DNA from: a virus
IMG/VR virus record: IMGVR_UViG_3300032132_000754
Span: 121,178-185,177 of that record
Length of the DNA stretch: 64,000 bases
Direction: 5' to 3' (one strand)
Below, piece after piece: positions 52,541-64,000 of this stretch. Every line of letters starts with the position of its first letter. The first letter of the stretch is position 1. The notes below the pieces were generated by a model. It was not told where the DNA came from, made no database searches, and saw only the letters and a list, made by a program, of their open reading frames with translations. Position numbers and translations under genes: made by a program.

Positions 52541-53923
52541 CTAAGACCAAAGAAGGTCCCTAACACCCTTCAAATCCTGGTCTACCAGAACTTCCCCATC
52601 CCTAAAGACTTCCCTAAGAAGATCCTTTTCATCAGCACCCATCGTACGCTCCTTAATAGTATCGTACCCAAAAGAATCCTTAATTAAAGCCAAACGACCC
52701 CTCTTAGAATCCTTAGTCGGATCACTAGCAGGACGCTTAAACACATCCCGCTCCTGACCATCAACCACAACACTACTGCACTTGAAAGCGAACCTCTGAG
52801 TATCGCGGTTCAACCTCTGTAGCAAACCGCCACCCATACCAAATGCGATGTTATCCAAAGACCAACCAGTCCGAAGCATAGCATCAACTACCTTCTTAAT
52901 AGTATCAGGCGTGCAACCATCACCCTGGATCACACGAACATGATCATCCAAGACCTTATAGCCCTTCTTATTCGTATAAGTACCAAACGCCTCACCAAGA
53001 CGATTTAGCACATTTAATACCATAGGGACAATCTCACCACTATCAGGCCGAACAACCAAAGTGCCATCCCTATTAAGAATTTTACCCTTTAAGTGTTCAC
53101 CCCAAAGTTCAGTGCAAGCCCTATCGATATCGAATGAGTCACTAACGCAAGCCACCAATCCAGTAGGGTACTGATCAAGCATATTCCTAAATGCTTCAAC
53201 CTCTCCATGTTCACCCCAACTAGTAATAGTACTATGCTCCGAAGCCGGGATCGAGAAACCAGCCATCTCAGCATTATAGTATTTCTTGCCAGTCGTTAAC
53301 GCAGCAATAGTATCCGTACCCATGAAGTTGCAAAGATGAGCCAATCCACCAATTCCAGCAGATTCTACAGAGGTTGAACCCCTAAAACCGAAATCGTGAA
53401 GTTTAAAAGGAAGACCATCAAGAGTATCACAAGATGTCTCCATTCCCTTTGCAATTAAATTTCTGACATAATTAGAAATTGTAGCAACAGTCGAAGGGTA
53501 CCAAACCATCACGAGAAGTGTCTCAAGATAATTCGGCAACCAATAGCACTCAGGGTCAGTATTCTCGATAGTCATCATGACATTAGACTCAGGAACAGCC
53601 ATACCCTCAGGCACAGCCTTGATGCTCACAGGTAGCTTGCCACCATGCTTCTCAAGAATATGTCTCCATCCGGCCTCATTGAAAGCTCCACCGACGCCAC
53701 CCATATGGGCATCAGAAAACTCCTTGGCCTCCTGGATGAATTCCTCAGTGACTACTACACCTTCAAGGTACTTCTTTAAGAAATACTGCAATCCGAAGAA
53801 CACAGTGTCCGGGTATTCAGACCCAACACGAGATTCGAAGTAAGAATAGACCTTACTAGTCCCAGGCGGGTACTGCTTGTAGTGAGAAAGTTTATATGAA
53901 TCAGTTAACAAAAGAATAGACAT
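52541..53923 (-). CDS. nadV: Nicotinamide phosphoribosyltransferase
   Basis: The 460-residue product makes NMN from nicotinamide and PRPP. It shows LTDSYKLSHYKQYPPG at the N-terminus, FGFRGSTS (R181), SIPASEHSTITSWG with the autophosphorylated H230, SDS at 261-263, RPDSG (292-296), VIQGDG and FGMGGGLLQRLNRD. All substrate-binding motifs of NAMPT are intact. AAAGGGGATTAAAATG gives a good Shine-Dalgarno. It is followed in function by the NMN adenylyltransferase gene immediately upstream on the same strand. Confidence 0.95.
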   Translation of the reverse strand: MSILLLTDSYKLSHYKQYPPGTSKVYSYFESRVGSEYPDTVFFGLQYFLKKYLEGVVVTEEFIQEAKEFSDAHMGGVGGAFNEAGWRHILEKHGGKLPVSIKAVPEGMAVPESNVMMTIENTDPECYWLPNYLETLLVMVWYPSTVATISNYVRNLIAKGMETSCDTLDGLPFKLHDFGFRGSTSVESAGIGGLAHLCNFMGTDTIAALTTGKKYYNAEMAGFSIPASEHSTITSWGEHGEVEAFRNMLDQYPTGLVACVSDSFDIDRACTELWGEHLKGKILNRDGTLVVRPDSGEIVPMVLNVLNRLGEAFGTYTNKKGYKVLDDHVRVIQGDGCTPDTIKKVVDAMLRTGWSLDNIAFGMGGGLLQRLNRDTQRFAFKCSSVVVDGQERDVFKRPASDPTKDSKRGRLALIKDSFGYDTIKERTMGADEKDLLREVFRDGEVLVDQDLKGVRDLLWS

Positions 53924-53955
53924 TTTAATCCCCTTTCTGAGTAGATTAAATATTG

Positions 53956-54861
53956 TTAGATTTTAAGGTGTTCTTTTACCATCCTCAAAATAGGTAGATG
54001 CTGTTCTAACAGCAAATTTTCATTGAAATTATCCAAATTGAACCATTTCGCCTCGAACAAATCATCACCAGCATGCAGCTTGCCCCAAGCATACTTAGCA
54101 ACAAATACCGTTGACATTAGACCATCAACCTGGCCTCTATAACGCCAATCGTCAATTTTAGTAGACCCAACGTACTCCCAATCGTTCAACTCAATGTCGC
54201 CAAGCTCCTCACGAGCCTCACGCTGAGCTACCCGAAGGAGACTCTTGTCGCCGGGATCAGCGAACCCACCAGGGAAACGCCACTTATCCTTAGGATCATT
54301 CTTCTTACGACCCAAAGCAATACTATTGCCCTGTAACACAGCAACATCAACAACGCTGTAAACCGCAGGATACTTATTGAACGCCGCGTAAATCACCCCA
54401 CGACGGAACTCTTCGGAGAGTCTAACATCATTAGAGCATTCTTTACGAACTTTAGTACCGGAAATGCGGATCTTATTACTTAATTCAACCGTCTGATGTT
54501 TCCCTTTGTAATGAGGGATAAAACCATCGCGGGACCCATAAAGCAATGGGGTGCCAATAGAAAACGTTTCATTAATTTTCGTATCGACGACTCTAGACCA
54601 ATCCTTGTCGCTAGGCATATCATGCAGCGGCAACACATTAATGTCAGGATAGGCTTCCTTGATCATTAACATTCTAGTGTGGTAATCTAAGGGATCATGT
54701 CTGGTGACAAGAATGCCAGGCGTACTACCCATTAGGATTAGTACTTTATCGTGCCTAGATTTAACAAAATCGATGAGTTCGATATGCCCATCGTGAAGGG
54801 TCGGAACCTGAAAACGTCCGACGATTACACCAATTGCGGTGTCTGGTAGCTTAACTTCCAC
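53956..54861 (-). CDS. nadM: NMN adenylyltransferase-Nudix bifunctional protein
   Basis: The 301-residue fusion has a nucleotidyltransferase half with GRFQVPTLHDGH (15-26) and ISGTKVR (133-139), which makes NAD+ from NMN and ATP. The Nudix half has a box at about 199-221 (GFADPGDKSLLRVAQREARE then ELG), where Asp replaces the first Glu of the canonical box. Such fusions are known as NMNAT/ADP-ribose pyrophosphatases. It starts at GTG with AAGGAG 6 nt upstream and is 32 nt from nadV. The pair is a two-step NAD+ salvage module of the NARP2 type. Confidence 0.93.
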   Translation of the reverse strand: MEVKLPDTAIGVIVGRFQVPTLHDGHIELIDFVKSRHDKVLILMGSTPGILVTRHDPLDYHTRMLMIKEAYPDINVLPLHDMPSDKDWSRVVDTKINETFSIGTPLLYGSRDGFIPHYKGKHQTVELSNKIRISGTKVRKECSNDVRLSEEFRRGVIYAAFNKYPAVYSVVDVAVLQGNSIALGRKKNDPKDKWRFPGGFADPGDKSLLRVAQREAREELGDIELNDWEYVGSTKIDDWRYRGQVDGLMSTVFVAKYAWGKLHAGDDLFEAKWFNLDNFNENLLLEQHLPILRMVKEHLKI

Positions 54862-54923: not shown

Positions 54924-55235
54924 TTAAATACGTCTGAGTAAATCCTCAAATTTTACAAAACACGTCGGATCAGCCAAGTCTACCTTATAATGCTTCACCA
55001 TCCCAGGATCAACAGGACAATAAATAGAAGCAACACGATTCATTAAACTGACAGATCTAATCAAGAGTTTAGCCTTCCAAAACTTAACATTGATAGAAAT
55101 GCCATCTTTAATATAGCGATATTCAAAACTAATATCACTTAAAAACCCGTTTTGGTTTTCCGCAGACCAACCGCATCTAATACAAGTTTCCTCGACATAA
55201 TCGCGAACGGCCATCATCCCGATATCAGGATTCAT
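54924..55235 (-). CDS. DPxxF-family small protein
   Basis: The 103-residue protein has YKVDLADPTCFVKFEDLLRR at its C-terminus. The N-terminal helix is AVRDYVEETCIRCGWSAE, with the G-W pair of the family. It overlaps the upstream member by 4 nt. It is the last gene of the operon before the NAD+ pair. Confidence 0.75.
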   Translation of the reverse strand: MNPDIGMMAVRDYVEETCIRCGWSAENQNGFLSDISFEYRYIKDGISINVKFWKAKLLIRSVSLMNRVASIYCPVDPGMVKHYKVDLADPTCFVKFEDLLRRI

Positions 55236-55570
55236 CTGCTAATTCCCATATAAAAATCAACGAATTTCTTCTTAGCATTGTTGATAGATTGAGGATCGTG
55301 TAAATCCTCTTCAAACACTATCTTCCTTGGAGGTAAATTTAAGGGACCCTCCGGACCAGCGTTAGTAAAATCTTCAATGCCGACCCACTCACACTTGAAA
55401 TTAGTGTGGCGAATGGTAAACTGATACCACGGTTTTTGATAATGCTTCTTAGTTCCAATTACACAATGATAAGTCTCACCGTCCATCTCGACTGAAAATT
55501 TGTTATCATCAAGTTCCAGATAAACAGGCCATTCGGTAAGAATTTGATTTAAAATTTTAGCATCAACCAT
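55232..55570 (-). CDS. DPxxF-family small protein
   Basis: The 112-residue protein has a helix AKILNQILTEWPVYLE, several Trp/Tyr-rich strands and EEDLHDPQSINNAKKKFVDF at the end. Its LTEW-type helix and HDPQSIN block pair it with the members at 55563 and 40055. It overlaps the upstream gene by 8 nt. Confidence 0.7.
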   Translation of the reverse strand: MVDAKILNQILTEWPVYLELDDNKFSVEMDGETYHCVIGTKKHYQKPWYQFTIRHTNFKCEWVGIEDFTNAGPEGPLNLPPRKIVFEEDLHDPQSINNAKKKFVDFYMGISR

Positions 55571-55883
55571 TAGATATCCTGTATGAACTCGACAAAAATG
55601 TATCTTTGGAGCTATTTATGCTTTCAGGATCCGTAAGATCAACTGAAAAAACATCAATTTGAAACGGAACAGACCAAGGATCAGTATGCTTATCAATCCA
55701 ACGACACCTAAAAGTAGTACCATGGATCACAAAAATGAATTTACCACTACTATATTTCAAGGTAGATTCAGCAAGACCAGGGCTATAAGGTTGTGTAACA
55801 ACACCCTGATGATCCACACCCCACTCCGTTAAAATCTCAAGGAGAATCGCACCAGAAGTGATTTTATCACTATTTGACGGCAT
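55563..55883 (-). CDS. DPxxF-family small protein
   Basis: From ATG 55883 the product is 106 residues, with ILLEILTEWGVDHQG then VFSVDLTDPESINSSKDTFL. A TTG at 55898 would add five residues. It overlaps the upstream member by 14 nt, a value repeated at four other junctions of this array. Confidence 0.7.
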   Translation of the reverse strand: MPSNSDKITSGAILLEILTEWGVDHQGVVTQPYSPGLAESTLKYSSGKFIFVIHGTTFRCRWIDKHTDPWSVPFQIDVFSVDLTDPESINSSKDTFLSSSYRISNG

Positions 55884-56304
55884 TCCAAATTTCTTCAAAA
55901 CAATCAGGAGAATAAGGATTAACTTTTAACTCATCCCATTCCCACTGCTCATATCCACGATAAGGAGGCTTACTGTCACCACGCCTAATATACTCACCAA
56001 GAAACACCTTCATACTAGTCTTAGATAAGTAAACCTGATAAACAATATCTTTAACTTTCCTAACATTAATATTAGTTTTATTGAAACCAAGTCTAACCCA
56101 ATTTAACGGATTGAAAGTAACCGCTTCCCGTTTCATAACAATGAAAGAACCCTCGTTGGAAACACCGAAAAAATGCGGAGGCCCTAATCTATCCTTGCAC
56201 CATTCGTACATCGCTCCACTAAACAAAACACACGGCATAATTGGTGAAAATCCTGGGTCTCTATAGACCGTCATATGGCGGTAAGGATGCGGAAGATTGT
56301 TCAT
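55870..56304 (-). CDS. DPxxF-family small protein (long N-terminus)
   Basis: The 144-residue protein has a longer N-terminal region (YRHMTVYRDPGFSPIMPCVL), then FSGAMYEWCKDRLGPPHFFG, and ends KVNPYSPDCFEEIWNAVK. Of the standard signature the P and the F remain. Function unknown. Confidence 0.68.
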   Translation of the reverse strand: MNNLPHPYRHMTVYRDPGFSPIMPCVLFSGAMYEWCKDRLGPPHFFGVSNEGSFIVMKREAVTFNPLNWVRLGFNKTNINVRKVKDIVYQVYLSKTSMKVFLGEYIRRGDSKPPYRGYEQWEWDELKVNPYSPDCFEEIWNAVK

Positions 56305-56313
56305 ACTTTACTT

Positions 56314-56502
56314 TTAACTCTCGCGAGATTGTTCCAAGTAAAGTTTTTTCTTTAAAACAATCTCCCCACTATAACACCACAAGCTGCGCGCTAGGCTAAA
56401 CCAAGGATCATGGTCCATGTTGTCTTCTGAACTTCTTAACCATATTTTAGTGTGAGTTCGGTTAGCTATTTTACTAATTGCGTTGATGGCCAATAGTTTC
56501 AT
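56314..56502 (-). CDS. Hypothetical small protein, possible family remnant
   Basis: The 62-residue frame from ATG 56502 contains MDHDPWFSLARSLWCYSGEI, which has a DP-x-F like signature followed by a basic helix. It may be a shortened DPxxF relative. It is divergent from the 56528 gene with 25 bp between starts. The longer frame to 56550 would overlap that gene. Confidence 0.5.
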   Translation of the reverse strand: MKLLAINAISKIANRTHTKIWLRSSEDNMDHDPWFSLARSLWCYSGEIVLKKKLYLEQSRES

Positions 56503-56527
56503 AAAAATTAGATACCAAACATAAAGT

Positions 56528-56743
56528 ATGAAACATCTCGAAGAAGTCAACCTAACATACTGTCAACACCTAAAATGGGCCTTCTGTAGCAGCTGGAAAT
56601 TGCTATACGCTGGGGTTGCCTGTCTAGTACACTCCCTACTACCATTCCTATTCCAAAACACCGCAAGCGGAATAGTCTACGACATCTACGACGAACTAGA
56701 AGAACGAAGACTTAAACTAAAAGATACCAAAAATCCCTGGTAA
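56528..56743 (+). CDS. DUF6356-like small membrane protein
   Basis: The 71-residue protein starts MKHLEEVNLTYCQHLKWAFC, followed by a hydrophobic stretch (LLYAGVACLVHSLLPFLF) and TASGIVYDIYDELEERR. This order (H-L-x-E...T-Y-x-Q-H...A, then AG-x-A-x-x-VH-x-L-x-P-F-x-F..TAS) recalls the DUF6356 group of small membrane proteins found in bacteria. I assign it from memory of the pattern only. It may be captured from a host. Confidence 0.6.
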   Translation: MKHLEEVNLTYCQHLKWAFCSSWKLLYAGVACLVHSLLPFLFQNTASGIVYDIYDELEERRLKLKDTKNPW

Positions 56744-56756
56744 CAATAAATAAAAT

Positions 56757-57512
56757 ATGAAACTTAGAATTCTAGGCGAATCAGATGAAGATCTAAGAGC
56801 GTTAAAACGATATGCTCAATCATCTGGTGATTGGCAAGCATTAGAAAAATATTATCACCAGGCTAATCGAGCTGGAATCGTAGAAGGTGAAGCTTATTTA
56901 AGCCAAGTCCGTGCATTTTGTGTAACAAGCTCTTCAACCAACGAATATGTCGTTAACGTTTTTGCAAACAGACATGCTGTGCGCGGTGTTGTAATGAATC
57001 AGATCACAGGCATCCGAGATCGCGATTTACATATGTTCGATATGGAAAATGGATCTGGACAACCCGAGGGAGTCTGTTTTGTTGATCGTAAGAATAAAAT
57101 CCCAGATGGTGGAACAATTCTTAATCCAAGATTGAGCCAATACACTAGAAACAACATGACTCCAGAACAAATACAAGAATTTATGGAGTCATGGGACTTA
57201 AAAATGGTGCCAGCTAAAGCTTGGTTTCTAACCATCTACCATTTTAGCTCTGTAGATAATGCTCGCGAGCATTACGGCAAATTATATAGTGGTACGCAAG
57301 CAAGAATCGCTTATAAAAAATTGGATGCTGGCACAATCGGTTTACAAGATAAAAACCCGCCAAACTTCCCAAAGAAATCGAACGGTTTCCCATACAAAAG
57401 CAATAGAGCTGCCCTCAAATGGGCATCAGAATACCTACCACCAACAACAGTAGGTTCATTACAAGGGCCAGAAGTAAAAGTTAACCGCCAATTCCTATTC
57501 TGCGCTATCTAA
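56757..57512 (+). CDS. Hypothetical protein with LRALxRxAxxSGDxxAL leader
   Basis: The 251-residue protein opens MKLRILGESDEDLRALKRYA then QSSGDWQALEKYYHQANRAG, a two-helix leader shared in outline with the 31828-32529 product. The body (about 45-251) is mixed alpha/beta and not recognised, with FVDRKNKIPDGGTILNPRLS and a C-terminal basic region. It is the only long plus-strand gene inside the minus-strand array. Confidence 0.62.
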   Translation: MKLRILGESDEDLRALKRYAQSSGDWQALEKYYHQANRAGIVEGEAYLSQVRAFCVTSSSTNEYVVNVFANRHAVRGVVMNQITGIRDRDLHMFDMENGSGQPEGVCFVDRKNKIPDGGTILNPRLSQYTRNNMTPEQIQEFMESWDLKMVPAKAWFLTIYHFSSVDNAREHYGKLYSGTQARIAYKKLDAGTIGLQDKNPPNFPKKSNGFPYKSNRAALKWASEYLPPTTVGSLQGPEVKVNRQFLFCAI

Positions 57513-57887
57513 CTTCTTACGACCAGCACGCTCACGCTTAATGTAATCAGCAAATTTCTCAGAACCCATGTCTTCTTCTAGAGAAATACCGCAGTACATG
57601 CAAATGCGATCCTCAGGCCCGTAAGGCTCTGAGACCCACTTCCACGGGTGCTGCCGACAATCAGAACAGGATGGGCACTGATAACCCTCCTCGCTAACCC
57701 ACTGGTGTTGGCACGATACACACTCCCAACGTGCCTTACAATTAGGATGCAAAAACGTGTGGATGACCTTATGGCCCATATAAGCCATCCTTGGAATAAG
57801 ACGATTCATCGCATCGTCTTCACTTTCGCCGGATTTAACAGCCTTCTCGACTTCATCCATAATGTTTTTCATAGCGTCTGGGTGCAT
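57495..57887 (-). CDS. Multi-zinc-ribbon protein
   Basis: The 130-residue protein has CVSCQHQW, YQCPSCSDCRQHPWKW and ICMYCGISLEED, giving eight or more cysteines arranged as two probable zinc ribbons, then a basic C-terminus. It is a candidate nucleic-acid or protein adaptor. It shares 1 nt with the upstream DPxxF gene, so it is co-translated with that family. Confidence 0.68.
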   Translation of the reverse strand: MHPDAMKNIMDEVEKAVKSGESEDDAMNRLIPRMAYMGHKVIHTFLHPNCKARWECVSCQHQWVSEEGYQCPSCSDCRQHPWKWVSEPYGPEDRICMYCGISLEEDMGSEKFADYIKRERAGRKKLDSAE

Positions 57888-58162
57888 TAGTATTCCTCCA
57901 TAATTCTGCGGTGTTCTCTAATAGCTTTATGCAACTTATCGAAAAATTCAGGATCACACAAATCACCTGTAAAAGCTCCTAAACCTTTAAGAGCGAACAG
58001 GGAAGTATGGACCTTACTTCCTCTGACAGTGATTTTCTCTTGCCTCAAAGGTCCAAGATCAATGACGATAAGCTGTTCACGTTTTTGAACATCAATATGG
58101 CTGCGAACGATTGTGCAACCTATTTCTCTAAGCCAATCCTCTAAGATTTCTATAGCGAGCAT
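57887..58162 (-). CDS. DPxxF-family small protein
   Basis: The 91-residue protein has helix LAIEILEDWLREIGCTIV, strands (KREQLIVIDLGPLRQEKITV) and FTGDLCDPEFFDKLHKAIRE at the end. It is one of the clearest members. Its leader follows the repeat-bearing gap at 58163-58300. Confidence 0.78.
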   Translation of the reverse strand: MLAIEILEDWLREIGCTIVRSHIDVQKREQLIVIDLGPLRQEKITVRGSKVHTSLFALKGLGAFTGDLCDPEFFDKLHKAIREHRRIMEEY

Positions 58163-58300
58163 ACTTTTAATATACTGGTGAGATTAAACGCGATACCCTT
58201 CGGAATAGGGGTGATGAACGCGATTTACACGTCGCATGTTACCGCGCGAAGCGCCTTTCGGGTACCCCCCTCTACCCCTCTCATGATGAACGCGAGCGAA
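58163..58300. promoter_or_regulatory. Non-coding gap with 12-nt repeats, probable regulatory region
   Basis: This 138-bp gap is the only sizeable break in the 57495-62127 minus-strand array and is richer in G+C than its flanks. TGATGAACGCGA occurs at 58212-58223 and 58284-58295, and again at 62554-62565. TTAAACGCGATACC at 58184 matches TTAAACGAGATACC at 62511. A GCGC-GAA-GCGC inverted repeat lies near 58244. It probably holds the promoter of the 57495-58162 genes and the 3' end of the genes upstream. Confidence 0.6.
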
Positions 58301-58597
58301 TCAGAGACCATGAACTTTAAAAGCACTAACTAACATCCACTTTAACTTATCGAAAAACAAAGGATCCACCATATTAAGACCATAGAACTTACCATCAATC
58401 TCAACACTAGACCCAAACCTGACCTTACTATCCTCATAAACCACCAGCTTAATATTGAAAGCTAAATTATCAAAATCAACAGGCCGTTTAGGTCTGACCG
58501 CCACCATATCAGTATCACCATAAGACGGCGTCTTAACCACCCACGCAGACCAACCCTGCTCCTCACACCACTGAATTAAAACATCGGAGGCCGTCAT
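58301..58597 (-). CDS. DPxxF-family small protein
   Basis: The 98-residue protein has ASDVLIQWCEEQGWSAWVV at the N-terminus and YGLNMVDPLFFDKLKWMLVS near the end. It is a textbook example of the family layout, with an acidic-to-neutral middle of about 45 residues. It overlaps the upstream member by 4 nt. Confidence 0.8.
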   Translation of the reverse strand: MTASDVLIQWCEEQGWSAWVVKTPSYGDTDMVAVRPKRPVDFDNLAFNIKLVVYEDSKVRFGSSVEIDGKFYGLNMVDPLFFDKLKWMLVSAFKVHGL

Positions 58598-58890
58598 TCC
58601 TTACCCAAATCCGCCAATGTCATGGGACCCAGTTTAATAATCGTGTAGAGCCTGTCGAAAAACTCAGGGCTATGTATATCCATAGGTAGGTAGCCGCCTT
58701 TAACCCGGCCATCAAATATCCACCCGACGAAAATCGTCGTGGACGGCCAAGACTTACCACCGAGAGTAATCACGAAGCGGCTCCCAGGGTGTGCTGGAGC
58801 TTCAAAAAACATAGTATCGACGCCTAGCTCCAAACAAGGCTCCCAACCCATCCCTTTAAACCACTCCCCAATCAGATCAAGGGGACCCAT
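58594..58890 (-). CDS. DPxxF-family small protein
   Basis: From ATG 58890 the 98-residue product has PLDLIGEWFKGMGWEPC and PMDIHSPEFFDRLYTIIKLG. An in-frame earlier start at 58914 would lie within the upstream gene. The overlap with the upstream member is 14 nt. Confidence 0.78.
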   Translation of the reverse strand: MGPLDLIGEWFKGMGWEPCLELGVDTMFFEAPAHPGSRFVITLGGKSWPSTTIFVGWIFDGRVKGGYLPMDIHSPEFFDRLYTIIKLGPMTLADLGKE

Positions 58891-59176
58891 AAATGCCACG
58901 CTTATCCAACACAACCTTCAACTTATCAAAAGAATCAGGATCAGCCAAATCAATCTCATCAACAAAACCAATACTCAACGAACCATTCTTCATAGCAGGA
59001 GTATAAAGAATCTTAGTCCCCTCAATAGCAACTACAATATTCCGACCCTTAACAAAACCGGTGATTAACCACGTCTGATTCTGGACCTCCTCACCAGGCC
59101 CAAAATCCATAAACTTCAAACCATTCTCAACGCACCAAAAACGCAAAATATCAATTGTACGCAAGGAAGATCCCAT
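58877..59176 (-). CDS. DPxxF-family small protein
   Basis: The 99-residue protein has TIDILRFWCVENGLKFMDFG and DEIDLADPDSFDKLKVVLDK. A TTG at 59164 is an alternative start that would give a 14-nt instead of a 26-nt overlap with the upstream member. Confidence 0.77.
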   Translation of the reverse strand: MGSSLRTIDILRFWCVENGLKFMDFGPGEEVQNQTWLITGFVKGRNIVVAIEGTKILYTPAMKNGSLSIGFVDEIDLADPDSFDKLKVVLDKRGIYGSP

Positions 59177-59441
59177 TTAAAAACTGCCCTAACTTATTAA
59201 AACACTCAGGATCTGTCAGATACAGACAATCCACAGGCGTATTGCGATGATGAACTTCAACCCTAGTAGGATTACCAGGCCCACCCATACACAAAATCAC
59301 AGTCTGAAAATCATTGCTATGATTCCCATGCGTCTTAACCTCAATTCTACTAGGTCTAGAAGCCGGTCTAAAACGCCTCTGCATATGGCACTTCCAGCCA
59401 TTCTCACGCAACCACTCCAACATTAACTCATGTACTTCCAT
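59151..59441 (-). CDS. DPxxF-family small protein
   Basis: The 96-residue protein has VHELMLEWLRENGWKCHMQ then a basic stretch (RRFRPASRPSRIEVKTHG) and CLYLTDPECFNKLGQFLNGI. The basic middle distinguishes it from acidic members. Confidence 0.78.
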   Translation of the reverse strand: MEVHELMLEWLRENGWKCHMQRRFRPASRPSRIEVKTHGNHSNDFQTVILCMGGPGNPTRVEVHHRNTPVDCLYLTDPECFNKLGQFLNGIFLAYN

Positions 59442-59724
59442 CTAACAATCTCTTCAAAGCCACCTCTAGCTTAACAAAAAACTCCGGATCATAAACATTA
59501 AAATAATCCCACTTACGAAAACGCTTATCAATCTCATCAACCATAGTATCTTCCCTATTCGTAGCAGGAAGCTTAACCCTAGTCCTAAAAATACCAACTA
59601 CAGTATTATACCTAGAATTTTCCCTCTTAACACTAATCCCATACCACGCAATGCCGCCATCGATCTCATAAAGAGTCCAACCACGCTCCTCACACCACTC
59701 ATGCAGCAGACAGACTAAATCCAT
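59428..59724 (-). CDS. DPxxF-family small protein
   Basis: The 98-residue protein has LVCLLHEWCEERGWTLYEID and YFNVYDPEFFVKLEVALKRL. It overlaps its neighbours by 14 and 26 nt. Confidence 0.78.
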   Translation of the reverse strand: MDLVCLLHEWCEERGWTLYEIDGGIAWYGISVKRENSRYNTVVGIFRTRVKLPATNREDTMVDEIDKRFRKWDYFNVYDPEFFVKLEVALKRLLDGST

Positions 59725-59968
59725 AATTCAACAACGCCATCCTCAAATCATTAAAACACTTAGGGTCAGTAGCTTGAAATCTATGGCTGCGAACGTTTCC
59801 TTGACCCCACAACACTATTTCGTCCTTATAAACAGAAATAGCAACTCTATGCATGTCACAATGAAACTCCCCAGGGCGATGCTCCCCAGGGCCATCATCA
59901 AGTTCGTAGAAATGTTCATCCCAATCTTGCTCAATCAACCACTCTTTAAACAAATCATTTAAAGTCAT
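59699..59968 (-). CDS. DPxxF-family small protein
   Basis: The 89-residue protein has LNDLFKEWLIEQDWDEHFYE, an acidic/His linker and HRFQATDPKCFNDLRMALLN. It is one of the shortest full-layout members. Confidence 0.76.
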   Translation of the reverse strand: MTLNDLFKEWLIEQDWDEHFYELDDGPGEHRPGEFHCDMHRVAISVYKDEIVLWGQGNVRSHRFQATDPKCFNDLRMALLNYGFSLSAA

Positions 59969-60270
59969 CCACGGCCCAAGTATACCTCAAGGTCATTAAA
60001 AAACGTAGGACTAGCCATATCAAACTCATGGCCATCCACAGTAGCCTTAGACCCCATAATAAAAATCCTATGCGCCAAAGCCGCCTCTAAACACAACCCC
60101 ATCTGCTCCAAAATATTACCATTAGGATCAGCGTCAACCTTAGTTATCCTATCATAATTAAAAGTAATACGATGCATCAACCCCAGACCGAAACTAATAG
60201 ACTCCCTATGAATCTGAACGGGTTCATACTTATCCTTAATCCAATCATATAAAATATCAGCCCCGTTCAC
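59965..60270 (-). CDS. DPxxF-family small protein
   Basis: From GTG 60270 the product is 101 residues, starting NGADILYDWIKDKYEPV as expected for the family, and ending EFDMASPTFFNDLEVYLGRG. An ATG at 60303 would add 11 residues lying inside the upstream gene. A 14-nt overlap supports the GTG. Confidence 0.72.
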   Translation of the reverse strand: MNGADILYDWIKDKYEPVQIHRESISFGLGLMHRITFNYDRITKVDADPNGNILEQMGLCLEAALAHRIFIMGSKATVDGHEFDMASPTFFNDLEVYLGRG

Positions 60271-60595
60271 CCAACACCCGCTTAAGTAACCCATCAAGTT
60301 CAATAAAGAACCCAGGGTCCGTCAAGTTCAACACCTTAGACTTATGGTCGACAATATTCAGATTTAAATCCAAATCATACGTCTTAACCCTACGCGCCTT
60401 ATGGCCAATCTCCCACGTCACCAAAACAGAAGTAGGACTATTCTTACCAGCCTTAATAGTCACCTTAACCTTAGGGAAACCCCACCCCAAATTCTTAACA
60501 GTAATAAAACGATACCGACCCGGCTCAACAGGCGGCAAATGATGCTTCCACCCATTCTCCACCAACCACTCAGCTATCAAATTAATGCCAGTCAT
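60257..60595 (-). CDS. DPxxF-family small protein
   Basis: The 112-residue protein has INLIAEWLVENGWKHHLPP and VLNLTDPGFFIELDGLLKRV. The middle has long basic strands (RYRFITVKNLGWGFPKVKVT). It overlaps the upstream member by 4 nt. Confidence 0.77.
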   Translation of the reverse strand: MTGINLIAEWLVENGWKHHLPPVEPGRYRFITVKNLGWGFPKVKVTIKAGKNSPTSVLVTWEIGHKARRVKTYDLDLNLNIVDHKSKVLNLTDPGFFIELDGLLKRVLGERG

Positions 60596-60960
60596 AAAGC
60601 GCCTTTATCATAACTATAAATCTGATTCTTAAGAATGACATCCCACTCATACCGAATACGTTCCCCAAGCTTATCAAAAAAATGCGGTTCCGCCAAATTC
60701 CAGATAACCGGGATTTTCGTCTTAATTAAAACATCCAACGGCACTAATTTAGAACCATCATTAGAATCAAGCAACGGGTCCTCCCCAGTACCAAAAACCA
60801 CCAACCTAACCTGCTTACGACCAGAAGTTAACAACCCCTCAACAGACTTATCCCAAATTTCAATCCACATACCATGAGAACTAATATAGCTCTTATCCAT
60901 ACGACGAACCCCGAAACCCTGGTCTTCCGCCCATTGCATAATTAGATCAACTGGGGACAT
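60592..60960 (-). CDS. DPxxF-family small protein
   Basis: From ATG 60960 the product is 122 residues: SPVDLIMQWAEDQGFGVRRM and IWNLAEPHFFDKLGERIRYE, with AEP for DP and a 15-residue C-terminal extension. A GTG at 60969 is a weaker alternative start. Confidence 0.74.
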   Translation of the reverse strand: MSPVDLIMQWAEDQGFGVRRMDKSYISSHGMWIEIWDKSVEGLLTSGRKQVRLVVFGTGEDPLLDSNDGSKLVPLDVLIKTKIPVIWNLAEPHFFDKLGERIRYEWDVILKNQIYSYDKGAL

Positions 60961-60961
60961 A

Positions 60962-61207
60962 TTAACCACGCCAAGCCTCCACAGCTAAACCAAGGTCATC
61001 AAAAAACTTAGGGTCATACAAATTACCATTAAATTGAGTGCCATTATAAGCCCTAAAATTACTAAAAACATTTAAAGAAGAATCCGCCACGAAGTAGTAC
61101 TGCATATTCCCCAAATGCAACTCAACCGTATGGGACCCCTCCTTAACTACGTTACCGTCTCCGAAAACCTCACCCAAGTACTGAGCAACACCATCAATCG
61201 CTTCCAT
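60962..61207 (-). CDS. DPxxF-family small protein
   Basis: From ATG 61207 (GGAGG 6 nt upstream, the best Shine-Dalgarno in the array) the product is 81 residues, with AIDGVAQYLGEVFG at the start and FNGNLYDPKFFDDLGLAVEA at the end. The frame continues to 61225 but that region lies within the upstream gene. Confidence 0.75.
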   Translation of the reverse strand: MEAIDGVAQYLGEVFGDGNVVKEGSHTVELHLGNMQYYFVADSSLNVFSNFRAYNGTQFNGNLYDPKFFDDLGLAVEAWRG

Positions 61208-61430
61208 CTTTATCCTCCGGAACACACTTAGGACACTTACAATCCTTCAACGCCTCAACAACCTCAGCCATATGCTTAGCAACCCCATCAAACAAATCAG
61301 CAATATTCTTAGCCGACTCCTCAGGAGTCCCAACAAGATCAGCAGAAATCAACTTCTTAGCAGGCTTCCTAATTAAAGGCCAGACAAAACTCTTAAATTC
61401 CGGTATATCAGAATCTTTTGGCAAACTCAT
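61194..61430 (-). CDS. Hypothetical helical protein with CxCPKC tail
   Basis: The 78-residue protein is helical (AKNIADLFDGVAKHMAEVVE) and ends KDCKCPKCVPEDKDGSD with a possible partial zinc site. It is not a DPxxF member but is embedded in that array with 14-nt and 4-nt overlaps. Confidence 0.62.
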   Translation of the reverse strand: MSLPKDSDIPEFKSFVWPLIRKPAKKLISADLVGTPEESAKNIADLFDGVAKHMAEVVEALKDCKCPKCVPEDKDGSD

Positions 61431-61780
61431 ATATTCAACCCTTCCTCAATATGCGCATGGTACCAAGCGCCATTCCTACTCTTTTCCCCCCACACCCAAG
61501 AAAACAATTCATCGAAAAAGTCAGGAGACGTCATCCGCAAATCAATGACAGAACTACCCTGCAAATCATCGCTACGAACCCTAATTCTAACCCAATCCCC
61601 CTGAATATATAAAACCCGATGAGAATCCCCATCCGACTCACACCGCTTTAAAGCAATAACCCAACTAGTAAGCCTAGAACCACCACCAGGCCGAGAATTC
61701 ACAACAAACTTCCCCAACTTCATCTCATGAATCCACTCATGAATAATAGCCTGCGGCGTCAACCTCGCTTCAAGTGTCAT
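61427..61780 (-). CDS. DPxxF-family small protein
   Basis: The 117-residue protein has TPQAIIHEWIHEMKLGKFVV, basic strands, and SVIDLRMTSPDFFDELFSWV at about 78-97, followed by a 20-residue tail. TSPDFF replaces DPxFF. Confidence 0.74.
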   Translation of the reverse strand: MTLEARLTPQAIIHEWIHEMKLGKFVVNSRPGGGSRLTSWVIALKRCESDGDSHRVLYIQGDWVRIRVRSDDLQGSSVIDLRMTSPDFFDELFSWVWGEKSRNGAWYHAHIEEGLNI

Positions 61781-61789
61781 CCTATCTCC

Positions 61790-62056
61790 CTAATGCTTAA
61801 ATAAACTCTTTGGTGGAGATTTAATTGGCGGCAACGGTTTAGGCCAATTAGGTGGCATCTTCAAATGAGAAAAATCCGGGGGACCCAAACAACTCTCCCC
61901 GCACGACCAACCCTTATAAGTCTTCCTAAACCCATGTTTAGTAATAGCCGCCCAAAAATCATCCTCAACCCCATCCGCCCAATCCTCATCAGCCGCCCGA
62001 ACTGGACCATTGATCCTCTTCGAACACGAGCTACACTTAACCTGTAAAGCATACAT
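61790..62056 (-). CDS. Small Cys-rich protein with proline tail
   Basis: The 88-residue protein has VKCSSCSKR near the start and WSCGESCLGPPDF later, making a four-Cys zinc site around a central acidic helix (ADEDWADGVEDDFWAAITKH), and ends in a Pro/Lys-rich tail. It starts the array together with the 62056-62127 peptide (TGATG overlap). Not recognised. Confidence 0.62.
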   Translation of the reverse strand: MYALQVKCSSCSKRINGPVRAADEDWADGVEDDFWAAITKHGFRKTYKGWSCGESCLGPPDFSHLKMPPNWPKPLPPIKSPPKSLFKH

Positions 62057-62127
62057 CACTGACTATCCGCGAAAACCATCAGGACAATAAAAACAACGAA
62101 AAGTAGCAGGCAGAAGTCAGCAAACAT
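62056..62127 (-). CDS. Possible 23-residue membrane peptide
   Basis: An ATG at 62125-62127 opens a 23-codon frame whose product is almost wholly hydrophobic (FCLLLFVVFIVLMVFA core), consistent with one membrane span. Its stop overlaps the ATG of the Cys-rich gene (TGATG), typical of coupled genes here. It may be a leader or micro-membrane protein. Coding capacity is not proven. Confidence 0.4.
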   Translation of the reverse strand: MFADFCLLLFVVFIVLMVFADSQ

Positions 62128-62228
62128 GTGTTTCTCACTACCTCTAAAATACCCCGTGTCGTGAGACGTTAATTATATTTAGAGAAATAACCCAATAAGA
62201 AACATAATATCCATCGTATGTTAAGATA

Positions 62229-62486
62229 ATGGAAACTTGGAAATTGTTAGAAGAATGGGTTTTAGAAAAACGCCCTAAAACCACTTTAATCCATTATAGA
62301 AAGGCTCGCAACAGCGCAGAAGAAAACATTTTAGAGATAGGGAGATACGACGTCGTTATTGACAAAACCGCAGTAAAAATCGCCCTAAGAGTAGACCAAA
62401 ATTTCAGCAAAATAAAATGGGTAAATCTAGATCTCTGCGACCCTGACTTTTTTGCCAAATTCGGCAAAAGCTTAAATGTCCTATAA
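62229..62486 (+). CDS. DPxxF-family small protein on the plus strand
   Basis: The 85-residue protein has ETWKLLEEWVLEKRPKTTLI and VNLDLCDPDFFAKFGKSLNV, so it is a clear member, but on the strand opposite the array and divergent from it. The upstream gap of about 100 bp (62128-62228) is AT-rich, contains TTAATTATATTTAGAG, and likely holds promoters for both directions. Confidence 0.76.
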   Translation: METWKLLEEWVLEKRPKTTLIHYRKARNSAEENILEIGRYDVVIDKTAVKIALRVDQNFSKIKWVNLDLCDPDFFAKFGKSLNVL

Positions 62487-62684
62487 CGCGTCTTTCCACG
62501 TAAGAGCACCTTAAACGAGATACCTCTCCGGGCCATATTAGAATTTAACTGAGTGATGAACGCGACCATAGTGTTGGAATGAACCTCGATAGAGAGACTA
62601 GGTCGCTCGGGGACCCACATAGCCCAAATTCTCACATGGCCGTACTCCCCACATAGCCGTCCCGGAGCCCCCGGAGCGGGGGGG
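62487..62684. promoter_or_regulatory. Composition switch with repeat boxes upstream of the first cassette
   Basis: No gene is evident between 62487 and the promoter at 62685. TTAAACGAGATACC (62511) and TGATGAACGCGA (62554) repeat elements of the 58163-58300 gap. CCACATAGCC occurs at 62615 and 62649, with a variant TCACATGGCC at 62632. Base composition rises steeply from about 62600 onward. Confidence 0.6.
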
Positions 62685-62713
62685 TTGCGTCTGCGGCCAC
62701 CCGCTGATACAAT
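62685..62713 (+). promoter_or_regulatory. Sigma-70-type promoter of cassette 1
   Basis: TTGCGT at 62685-62690 and TACAAT at 62708-62713 are separated by exactly 17 bp and precede the 62809 gene. The same arrangement with the same surrounding sequence (GGGGTTGCG, TGCGGCCA) recurs at 63434-63462 before the paralogous gene. Confidence 0.72.
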
Positions 62714-62808
62714 GGGAGCGCCGGAGGGGGGCGCGGGCGCAACGGAGCGCGCGCAACCCACCCGAGGCGCAACCCCAACGGCCACAACCGAGTGGCACGG
62801 AGACCCCG

Positions 62809-63234
62809 ATGTTTGAGAAGCTAAACCTGACCGCAGCCCCGAAGACCTCTCGCGCGACCGCCTTCGCGTTCCCGCTCACGATCGCCTTCGTCCAGACGCT
62901 CACGGACGAGGGCTACCGCCTCTCGTACACGGCCTTGCGCAACGCGGCGCACGACCTGGGCGAGGACGCGAGCAACCAGAAGCCCGCACAGCGCGGAGCC
63001 TTCCTGGCGAAGAAGCTGCCGGGACACCTCCAGCCGAGCGTGTCGCGGAAGAACGGCACGTACCACGAGAAGGTCCTGACGGCCTGGACGGTCGACGTCG
63101 ACCGTGCGGAGCTGGCCACGCGACCGGTCGTCACGAAGGACGACCTCGACGGTTTCCTGAGCGTCTGGCAGGAGGCGACCGAGGCGGAGGCCGAGTGTGG
63201 CGAGGACGAGGACGAGACCGTCAGCGAGGGCTAG
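62809..63234 (+). CDS. GC-rich cassette protein, copy 1
   Basis: The 141-residue protein (MFEKLNLTAAPKTS start) is a paralogue of the 63555-63953 product. It has a helical core with YTALRNAAHDLGED and RGAFLAKKLPGHLQPSVSRK, the latter basic and possibly DNA-binding, then VVTKDDLDGFLSVWQEATEA and an acidic tail. GGAG lies 6 nt before the ATG. Codon use is strongly G/C at third positions, unlike the rest of the window. No family is recognised. Confidence 0.75.
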   Translation: MFEKLNLTAAPKTSRATAFAFPLTIAFVQTLTDEGYRLSYTALRNAAHDLGEDASNQKPAQRGAFLAKKLPGHLQPSVSRKNGTYHEKVLTAWTVDVDRAELATRPVVTKDDLDGFLSVWQEATEAEAECGEDEDETVSEG

Positions 63235-63246
63235 CCAGCCCGGCGA

Positions 63247-63293
63247 GCGGGGAGCCGGAAGGCTCCCCGCGAGCCACTCCCGCAAGGGGGTGG
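63247..63293 (+). terminator. Two consecutive GNRA-type hairpins after cassette 1
   Basis: GCGGGGAGCC-GGAA-GGCTCCCCGC (63247-63270) is a perfect 10-bp stem with a GGAA loop. CCACTCCC-GCAA-GGGGGTGG (63274-63293) is an 8-bp stem with one G-T pair and a GCAA loop. Neither is followed by a T run. They may end or stabilise the transcript. Confidence 0.65.
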
Positions 63294-63298
63294 CAAAG

Positions 63299-63420
63299 CC
63301 ACATAGCCGACCCACATAGCCGACGGGGAAACCACATAGCCGGTGCGAGGGGGAGCGGAACGCGGAGGGCGAGAGAGACCTTCCTATCTGAAGAGAACGT
63401 TGAAGAGTAACCACATAGCC
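63299..63420. repeat. CCACATAGCC iterated boxes (four copies)
   Basis: Exact CCACATAGCC(G) boxes lie at 63299, 63312, 63332 and 63411, just upstream of the second cassette promoter. Two exact copies and one variant occupy the corresponding place before cassette 1. They are candidate operators. The rest of the 63235-63433 gap (about 200 bp) holds only the two hairpins and no gene that I can support. Confidence 0.75.
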
Positions 63421-63433
63421 GGAGGTGGGGGGG

Positions 63434-63462
63434 TTGCGCGTGCGGCCATGCGCTGTTACAAT
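63434..63462 (+). promoter_or_regulatory. Sigma-70-type promoter of cassette 2
   Basis: TTGCGC at 63434-63439 and TACAAT at 63457-63462 with a 17-bp spacer repeat the cassette 1 promoter. A CCACATAGCC box ends 13 bp before the -35 element. Confidence 0.72.
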
Positions 63463-63554
63463 GGGGGTTCGGAGGGGGGGCGGACGCCGAGCGGCGCGAG
63501 CGACACCCTTCCGAGCAACCCCGAGTGGGCCGAGTGGCCCGAGGACCGATTACC

Positions 63555-63953
63555 ATGTTCGAAAAGATCAAGCTGACCGCGAAGACGACCGTGAAGACCT
63601 CCGACAAGGCCATGCCGAAGACGATCGCGTTCGTCCAGAAGCTCACCGAGGAGGGCTACCGGATCTCGTACACGGCGCTCCGGAACGCGGCGACGGAGCT
63701 GGGCGAGGACAACTCGCAGCAGAAGGCTCCGCAGAGGGGCGCGTACCTCGCCAACAAGCTGCCCGCCGACCTGCAGCCGAGTGTGACGCGGAAGAACGGC
63801 ACCTACCACGAGAAGGCGATCGCCAAGTGGACGGTGGAGGCTCCCGCCGACCTGGGCAGCCGACCGGTCGTGACGAAGGACTCCTTGGACGCCTTCCTGA
63901 GCGTCTGGCTGGAGGGCACCGCCGAGGCGAGCGACGAGGCGAGCGAGGGCTAG
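63555..63953 (+). CDS. GC-rich cassette protein, copy 2
   Basis: The 132-residue protein (MFEKIKLTAKTTVK start) is about two-thirds identical to copy 1, by eye, over most of its length: IAFVQKLTEEGYRISYTALR, LPADLQPSVTRKNGTYHEK and SRPVVTKDSLDAFLSVW. The acidic tail has diverged. The ATG at 63555 matches the copy 1 start; an in-frame ATG at 63525 is not conserved. Function unknown; conserved basic segments suggest nucleic-acid binding. Confidence 0.75.
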   Translation: MFEKIKLTAKTTVKTSDKAMPKTIAFVQKLTEEGYRISYTALRNAATELGEDNSQQKAPQRGAYLANKLPADLQPSVTRKNGTYHEKAIAKWTVEAPADLGSRPVVTKDSLDAFLSVWLEGTAEASDEASEG

Positions 63954-63965
63954 AGAACGGGGGGA

Positions 63966-63987
63966 GCGGGGGCCGAAAGGCCCCCGC
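63966..63987 (+). terminator. GAAA-loop hairpin after cassette 2
   Basis: GCGGGGGCC-GAAA-GGCCCCCGC forms a perfect 9-bp stem with a GNRA loop 13 nt after the stop codon, in the same position as the hairpin after cassette 1. Confidence 0.68.
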
Positions 63988-64000
63988 GACCTTCGGCTGA

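What the first reader, a model, noticed from the sequence alone, without database searches (positions are those of the whole stretch)
62600..64000. Abrupt G+C-rich segment with repeated promoter-gene-hairpin cassettes
Within about 100 bp the sequence changes from AT-rich phage DNA to strongly G+C-rich DNA. Two cassettes follow, each with CCACATAGCC boxes, a -35/-10 pair with a 17-bp spacer, a leader, a paralogous gene (MFEK...), and a GNRA-loop hairpin. Single-gene transcription units contrast with the overlapping operons elsewhere. This could be an early-expressed, host-tuned gene array, a recent acquisition, or an assembly join.
Basis: partly seen in the sequence, partly recalled or inferred. 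Interest (0 to 1): 0.75.

Follow-up and report, generated by a model that had tools for sequence, protein, structure and literature searches.

The report
G+C-rich gene cassettes in huge phage
The last 1.4 kb of this record is the true start of an oppositely transcribed arm of a huge T4-related phage, opening with two small, extremely G+C-rich single-gene units; two relatives carry an equally extreme gene at the matching spot, so it is not an assembly error and may hold genes tuned for translation by the host early in infection.

Summary
At window 62600 G+C jumps from 42% to 68%, followed by two cassettes about 745 bp apart: CCACATAGCC boxes, TTGCGY-17-TACAAT, a G+C-rich leader, a paralogous gene (66% identity) and a GNRA hairpin. 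It is not an assembly join. The record is a 185-kb fragment, colinear over most of its length with a 370.8-kb relative (G001). G001 has its own G+C step at 345.5 kb, inside its contig, and that place is the single best match to the window's junction in all of G001 (score 64.5; next 31.5), sharing a CACATGGCCGTACTCC element. The step lies where transcription diverges, at G001's GC-skew minimum. A third genome (G002) has its skew minimum beside its highest-GC3 gene at a matching place. The first gene past the step is extreme in all three (GC3 0.92/0.96, 0.88, 0.97; medians 0.36, 0.46, 0.56), although the three first genes are unrelated. Third-position differences between the two window genes are mostly G-C swaps, so the bias was kept since they separated. 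Best reading: head of the rightward, probably early, gene arm with host-tuned, individually transcribed small genes. Timing and host tuning are inferred. No relatives of the proteins were found; their role is unknown.

The parts
62553..62588 (.). Conserved junction element: GTGATGAACGCG (62553-62564) and AATGAACCTCG (62578-62588)
   Evidence: Same two blocks, same order and nearly the same spacing at G001:345446-345480, the only such place in 20 related records
62600..62600 (.). G+C change-point, 42% to 68%
   Evidence: Maximum-likelihood change-point; G001 has its own at 345475, G002 at 90286
62615..62658 (+). Box array of cassette 1: CCACATAGCC at 62615-62624 and 62649-62658, degenerate copy at 62632-62641; contains CACATGGCCGTACTCC (62633-62648) shared with G001
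   Evidence: CCACATGGCC occurs on the + strand of G001 only twice, both at its junction
62685..62713 (+). Promoter-like site 1: TTGCGT-17-TACAAT
   Evidence: Read from sequence; 8 of 12 to the sigma-70 consensus; not called by the scanner
62715..62808 (+). G+C-rich leader 1 (transcript start inferred); purine-rich GGAG before the ATG
   Evidence: Fold z = -2.8
62809..63234 (+). Gene 1, 141-aa orphan protein P0001, GC3 0.92
   Evidence: no homologue found
63242..63275 (+). 3' hairpin 1, GGAA loop, no T-run
   Evidence: z = -4.3 for 63232-63290; inverted repeat I7
63299..63420 (+). Box array of cassette 2: CCACATAGCC at 63299, 63312, 63332 and 63411
63434..63462 (+). Promoter-like site 2: TTGCGC-17-TACAAT
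   Evidence: 74% identity to cassette 1 over 89 nt
63465..63554 (+). Leader 2
   Evidence: Stable but not beyond shuffles, z = -1.0
63555..63953 (+). Gene 2, 132-aa protein P0002, paralogue of gene 1, GC3 0.96
63959..63991 (+). 3' hairpin 2, GAAA loop, no T-run
   Evidence: z = -5.3 for 63951-64000

Best explanation
The segment is the head of the rightward arm of a huge (probably about 370-kb class) T4-related phage, at the point where the leftward and rightward gene arms diverge. It opens with small genes that each have their own regulatory unit: box array, sigma-70-like promoter, leader, gene, 3' hairpin. I infer that these units are read by the host RNA polymerase soon after infection, ended or stabilised at the hairpin, and translated with the host's own tRNAs before the phage's tRNAs and later programme take over; hence codon usage typical of a high-G+C host. 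The boxes would be sites for a shared regulator; because the same kind of box stands before unrelated first genes in two phages, the binder is probably not the cassette product. Shown: conserved junction, divergence point, GC3 extremes, repeated architecture. Inferred: early timing, host tuning, promoter and terminator activity, the box-binding factor, the function of the proteins.
For: Junction conserved with G001 (best match of the whole genome 64.5, next 31.5) at G001's own G+C step. Divergence of coding strands and global GC-skew minimum at the step in G001 (345805) and beside the matching gene in G002 (89637). First gene past the step GC3-extreme in three genomes; five G+C-rich genes in the first 10 kb of the G001 arm. 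Bias kept since the two window genes separated (41 of 54 third-position differences are G-C swaps). Small, individually bounded genes with 3' hairpins in G000, G001 and G002. 42 phage tRNA genes and a low-GC3 rest of the genome.
Against: No expression data and no known host. Non-coding parts are 68-71% G+C as well, so codon tuning alone cannot explain the composition. The promoter-like pairs are weak, and TTGCGY-17-TACAAT is not conserved in G001. The hairpins lack T-runs. The junction was not found by sequence in G002, G003 or G004. Skew minima also follow coding-strand switches.
Confidence: 0.6

Rival explanations
1. The divergence point is mainly a replication origin, and the local G+C extreme reflects replication- or recombination-linked biased mutation or structured origin DNA rather than translation tuning; the small genes are bystanders.
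For: Global GC-skew minimum at the step in G001 and next to the gene in G002; non-coding DNA as G+C-rich as the genes; conserved direct repeats ATGAACGCG and ATGAACCTCG.
Against: No DnaA-box matches near the junction in any of the three genomes; in G001 the skew follows coding strand over other long stretches too; G+C-rich genes in G001 are separated by ordinary DNA and spread over 10 kb.
Confidence: 0.2
2. The cassettes are recently acquired DNA from a high-G+C host or phage, inserted at a tolerant site (moron-like) and tandemly duplicated before or after entry.
For: Composition far outside the genome's range; each genome has a different first gene; no homologues of P0001/P0002 in the compared phages.
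Against: The flanking junction and box element are shared with G001; three genomes have the same kind of extreme gene at the matching place; no donor found in GTDB genome contigs, plasmids or phages.
Confidence: 0.15
3. Assembly chimera: the G+C-rich piece belongs to another organism.
For: The step is abrupt, lies 1.4 kb from the record's end, and both record ends coincide with ORF stops, as if trimmed from a longer contig.
Against: The same junction sequence and step lie inside an independent 370.8-kb contig.
Confidence: 0.02

Closest known systems
PeSL elements (promoter early stem-loops) of T4-type phages (Arbiol 2010; Comeau 2014; both seen here only as cited and described in PMC4503421)
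   Same: Short intercistronic unit of stem-loop plus early-type promoter flanking small novel genes in plastic regions of gp23-bearing phages
   Different: Here only two units are visible, they flank paralogues, the promoter is weak, a box array is added, and the unit is not repeated elsewhere in the record
SPO1 host-takeover module (PMC6873191)
   Same: Cluster of small genes with their own promoters, expressed early in SPO1
   Different: Unrelated phage; there in the terminal redundancy; here no expression or toxicity data, and an extreme composition step is the main sign
Huge phages IMGVR_UViG_3300030385_002649 (G001) and LR756511.1
   Same: Major capsid protein 89% identical to the former and 41% to the latter; G001 has the same junction
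   Different: The first gene of the arm in G001 is unrelated; these records carry no annotation here and I know of no description of the locus

Membership tests
T4-type (gp23-bearing) phages | gp23-like major capsid protein | tested here: met
   tblastn to phage records annotated gp23 or major capsid protein, 29-31% identity over more than 90% of the protein, E down to 4e-48
PeSL cassettes | Intercistronic stem-loop followed by an early, host-type promoter | tested here: inconclusive
   Stem-loop strong; promoter-like pair 8 of 12, not called by the scanner
PeSL cassettes | Many near-identical copies flanking unrelated genes | tested here: not met
   Two copies only, flanking paralogues; the promoter core occurs nowhere else in the record or in IMG/VR
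PeSL cassettes | Mediates gene shuffling | tested here: inconclusive
   The box type is shared by G000 and G001 before unrelated genes, which fits, but no recombination was shown
Host-takeover module (SPO1 type) | Cluster of small genes with own promoters | tested here: inconclusive
   Small genes met; promoters unproven
Host-takeover module (SPO1 type) | Early expression and interference with the host | not testable with these tools
   Needs infection time course and expression assays
Host-takeover module (SPO1 type) | Location in a terminal redundancy | not tested
   Genome ends are unknown; in G001 the locus is internal to the contig

The most novel reading that the evidence does not exclude
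In a clade of huge T4-related phages, the point where the two gene arms diverge carries a control region that launches a set of replaceable, G+C-extreme single-gene units. Their codon usage matches a high-G+C host and contrasts with the rest of the genome because they must be translated before the phage's own tRNA set is made: a two-phase codon strategy written into the genome map.
Probability: 0.35. Interest if true: 0.7.

Novelty: new variant of a known kind. Interest (0 to 1): 0.5.

Why it matters
It turns a suspected assembly fault into a mapped control point of uncultured huge phages: where transcription (and perhaps replication) starts, and which genes probably act first on the host. If the codon contrast is temporal, sequence alone would show which genes of such phages are expressed first and what composition the unknown host has. 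The orphan proteins at this place would be prime candidates for host-takeover factors.

Tried and rejected
No relative of P0001/P0002 was found in IMG/VR by single protein or alignment, in phages, plasmids (one insignificant hit), GTDB genome contigs or 11 related phage records. Nothing significant in PHROGs, Pfam, NCBIfam or PDB sequences. The AlphaFold model of P0001 is too poor to use (pLDDT 45) and its fold search gave nothing; a winged-helix guess was therefore dropped. The model of the G001 family is weak too (pLDDT 53). Box-pair scan of viral contigs: 13 hits, none with a relative of the cassette genes. The scan for CACATRGCCGTACTCC gave 12 hits, only G001 in the right context. The promoter-core scan had no hit. 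No Rfam family. A tetraloop-hairpin reading of the AGCCAAGTGG motif of G001 failed its control. No DnaA boxes at the junction. The junction was not found by sequence in G002, G003 or G004. The last viral scan, with the G001 gene family, found only G001 itself.

Full report
What the record is. The window is the last 64 kb of a 185,177-bp IMG/VR record. Its capsid protein is gp23-like and 89% identical to that of G001 (IMGVR_UViG_3300030385_002649, 370,804 bp) and 85% to that of G002 (IMGVR_UViG_3300032132_000001, 395,473 bp). Most of the record is colinear with G001 from 157 to 326 kb, so it is best read as a fragment of a huge phage. Both record ends coincide with ORF stops (capsid gene stop at base 1; an ORF in another frame than gene 2 stops at window base 64000), which suggests trimming at gene calls. 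The real DNA probably continues past 64000.

The observation. All parts of it are present: the G+C step at 62600, six exact boxes, two promoter-like pairs with 17-bp spacers, two paralogous genes, and two GNRA hairpins with z of -4.3 and -5.3. The promoter calls are modest: the -35 TTGCGY matches the consensus at 3 of 6 positions and the scanner did not report either site.

Is it a join artefact? No. G001 has a G+C step at 345475. The window's 160-bp junction aligns there with a score of 64.5, while the next best place in the whole of G001 scores 31.5 and the best of 1000 shuffled queries 37.5. The shared blocks are GTGATGAACGCG, AATGAACCTCG and CACATGGCCGTACTCC, in the same order, with a second box following the last block in both. 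CCACATAGCC occurs in G000 only in the cassettes, and CCACATGGCC in G001 only twice, both at the junction. The step in G001 lies 25 kb inside its contig.

Where it sits. In G001 the genes left of the step lie mainly on the minus strand and those right of it on the plus strand, and the cumulative GC skew has its global minimum at 345805. In G002, which is held in the opposite orientation, the global minimum is at 89637, and the gene beside it, 89736-90095, first of that arm, is the highest-GC3 ORF of the genome (0.97; median 0.555). It is a single unit with a G+C-rich structured leader and a hairpin terminator with a T-run. In G000 the minimum also falls in gene 1, but this is less informative because the record ends there.

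Composition. GC3 is 0.92 and 0.96 in the two window genes, against a median of 0.36 and 0.51 for the capsid gene. In G001 the first gene has 0.88, and five genes in the first 10 kb have 0.76-0.89, against a median of 0.46. The first genes of the three genomes are not related by sequence; the first G001 gene belongs to a family with three members in G001 and one G+C-rich member in the same arm of G002 (E = 6e-13). Of 54 third-position differences between the two window genes 41 are G-C exchanges, dS is about 0.6 and dN/dS about 0.47: both are real genes and the bias was kept since they separated. Non-coding parts are 68-71% G+C too, so translation tuning cannot be the whole explanation.

Mechanism proposed. 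The locus is the head of the rightward arm. Each unit has its own promoter-like site and hairpin, and a box array precedes it. Boxes are shared between phages with different first genes, so the binder is more likely a common phage or host factor than the cassette product. The phage carries 42 tRNA genes and is A+T-biased at third positions elsewhere; genes expressed before those tRNAs exist would gain from host-like codons. That chain from composition to timing is inference.

Comparison. The nearest concepts are PeSL units of T4-type phages (as described in PMC4503421; the original papers are not held) and the SPO1 host-takeover module (PMC6873191). The locus may work like either but is not filed as either: the many-copy feature of PeSLs was tested and not met, and the SPO1-type function is untested. 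A fourth relative, G004 (IMGVR_UViG_3300000976_000008), has another kind of array, 22 small genes each followed by a near-identical intercistronic hairpin, in the stretch where that genome's GC3 is highest. Hairpin-separated small-gene arrays may thus be common in this clade, but G004 does not share the junction.

Limits. No expression data, no host, one relative sharing the junction by sequence and a second by architecture only, unannotated records, ORFs called mechanically, and poor structure models.

Noticed in passing
G001 (loci L126-L144): 340.2 kb to contig end and 0-60.4 kb; G002 (L106-L110): 11.9-81.8 kb: Strand-polar 10-mers confined to this arm: AGCCAAGTGG 28 times on + and once on - in G001; AACATGCCAC 14 to 1 in G002, 12 of them in the arm. 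The motif differs between the phages and lies both in and between genes; shuffled G001 sequence reaches 7-8 copies of any non-homopolymer 10-mer. An RNA hairpin reading failed its control. Unexplained.
   Followed up: partly
G004 (L177), G004:C1:183700-193200: Array of 22 small minus-strand genes, each followed by a near-identical hairpin (TAACGGGAGTCTGC-TCTTCGCAACAGAAG-GGCAGACGATTCCC), in the GC3-richest stretch of that genome.
   Followed up: partly
window 54924-62486: At least 14 small ORFs share a C-terminal (D/S/E)P..F..L motif, mostly minus strand with short overlaps; the last (62229-62486) is on the + strand just before the junction. G001 has a different tandem Cys/His-rich small-gene family in the same place (339.6-344.1 kb).
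   Followed up: no
record G000:56-77 kb (L146, L147): 42 tRNA genes covering nearly all amino acids, among them one with a four-base anticodon call (gatg).
   Followed up: no
window 52541-54861: Nicotinamide phosphoribosyltransferase-like and NadM/Nudix-like genes side by side (my reading of the translations); both are adjacent in G002 too.
   Followed up: no
record G000 base 1 and window base 64000: The record starts at the stop codon of the capsid gene and ends at the stop of an ORF in another frame than gene 2, as if trimmed from a longer contig by gene calls.
   Followed up: partly
G001 345651-345690 (L143): The leader of the first G001 gene holds a terminator-like hairpin followed by TTTTT before the start codon, a possible attenuator or small-RNA end.
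   Followed up: no
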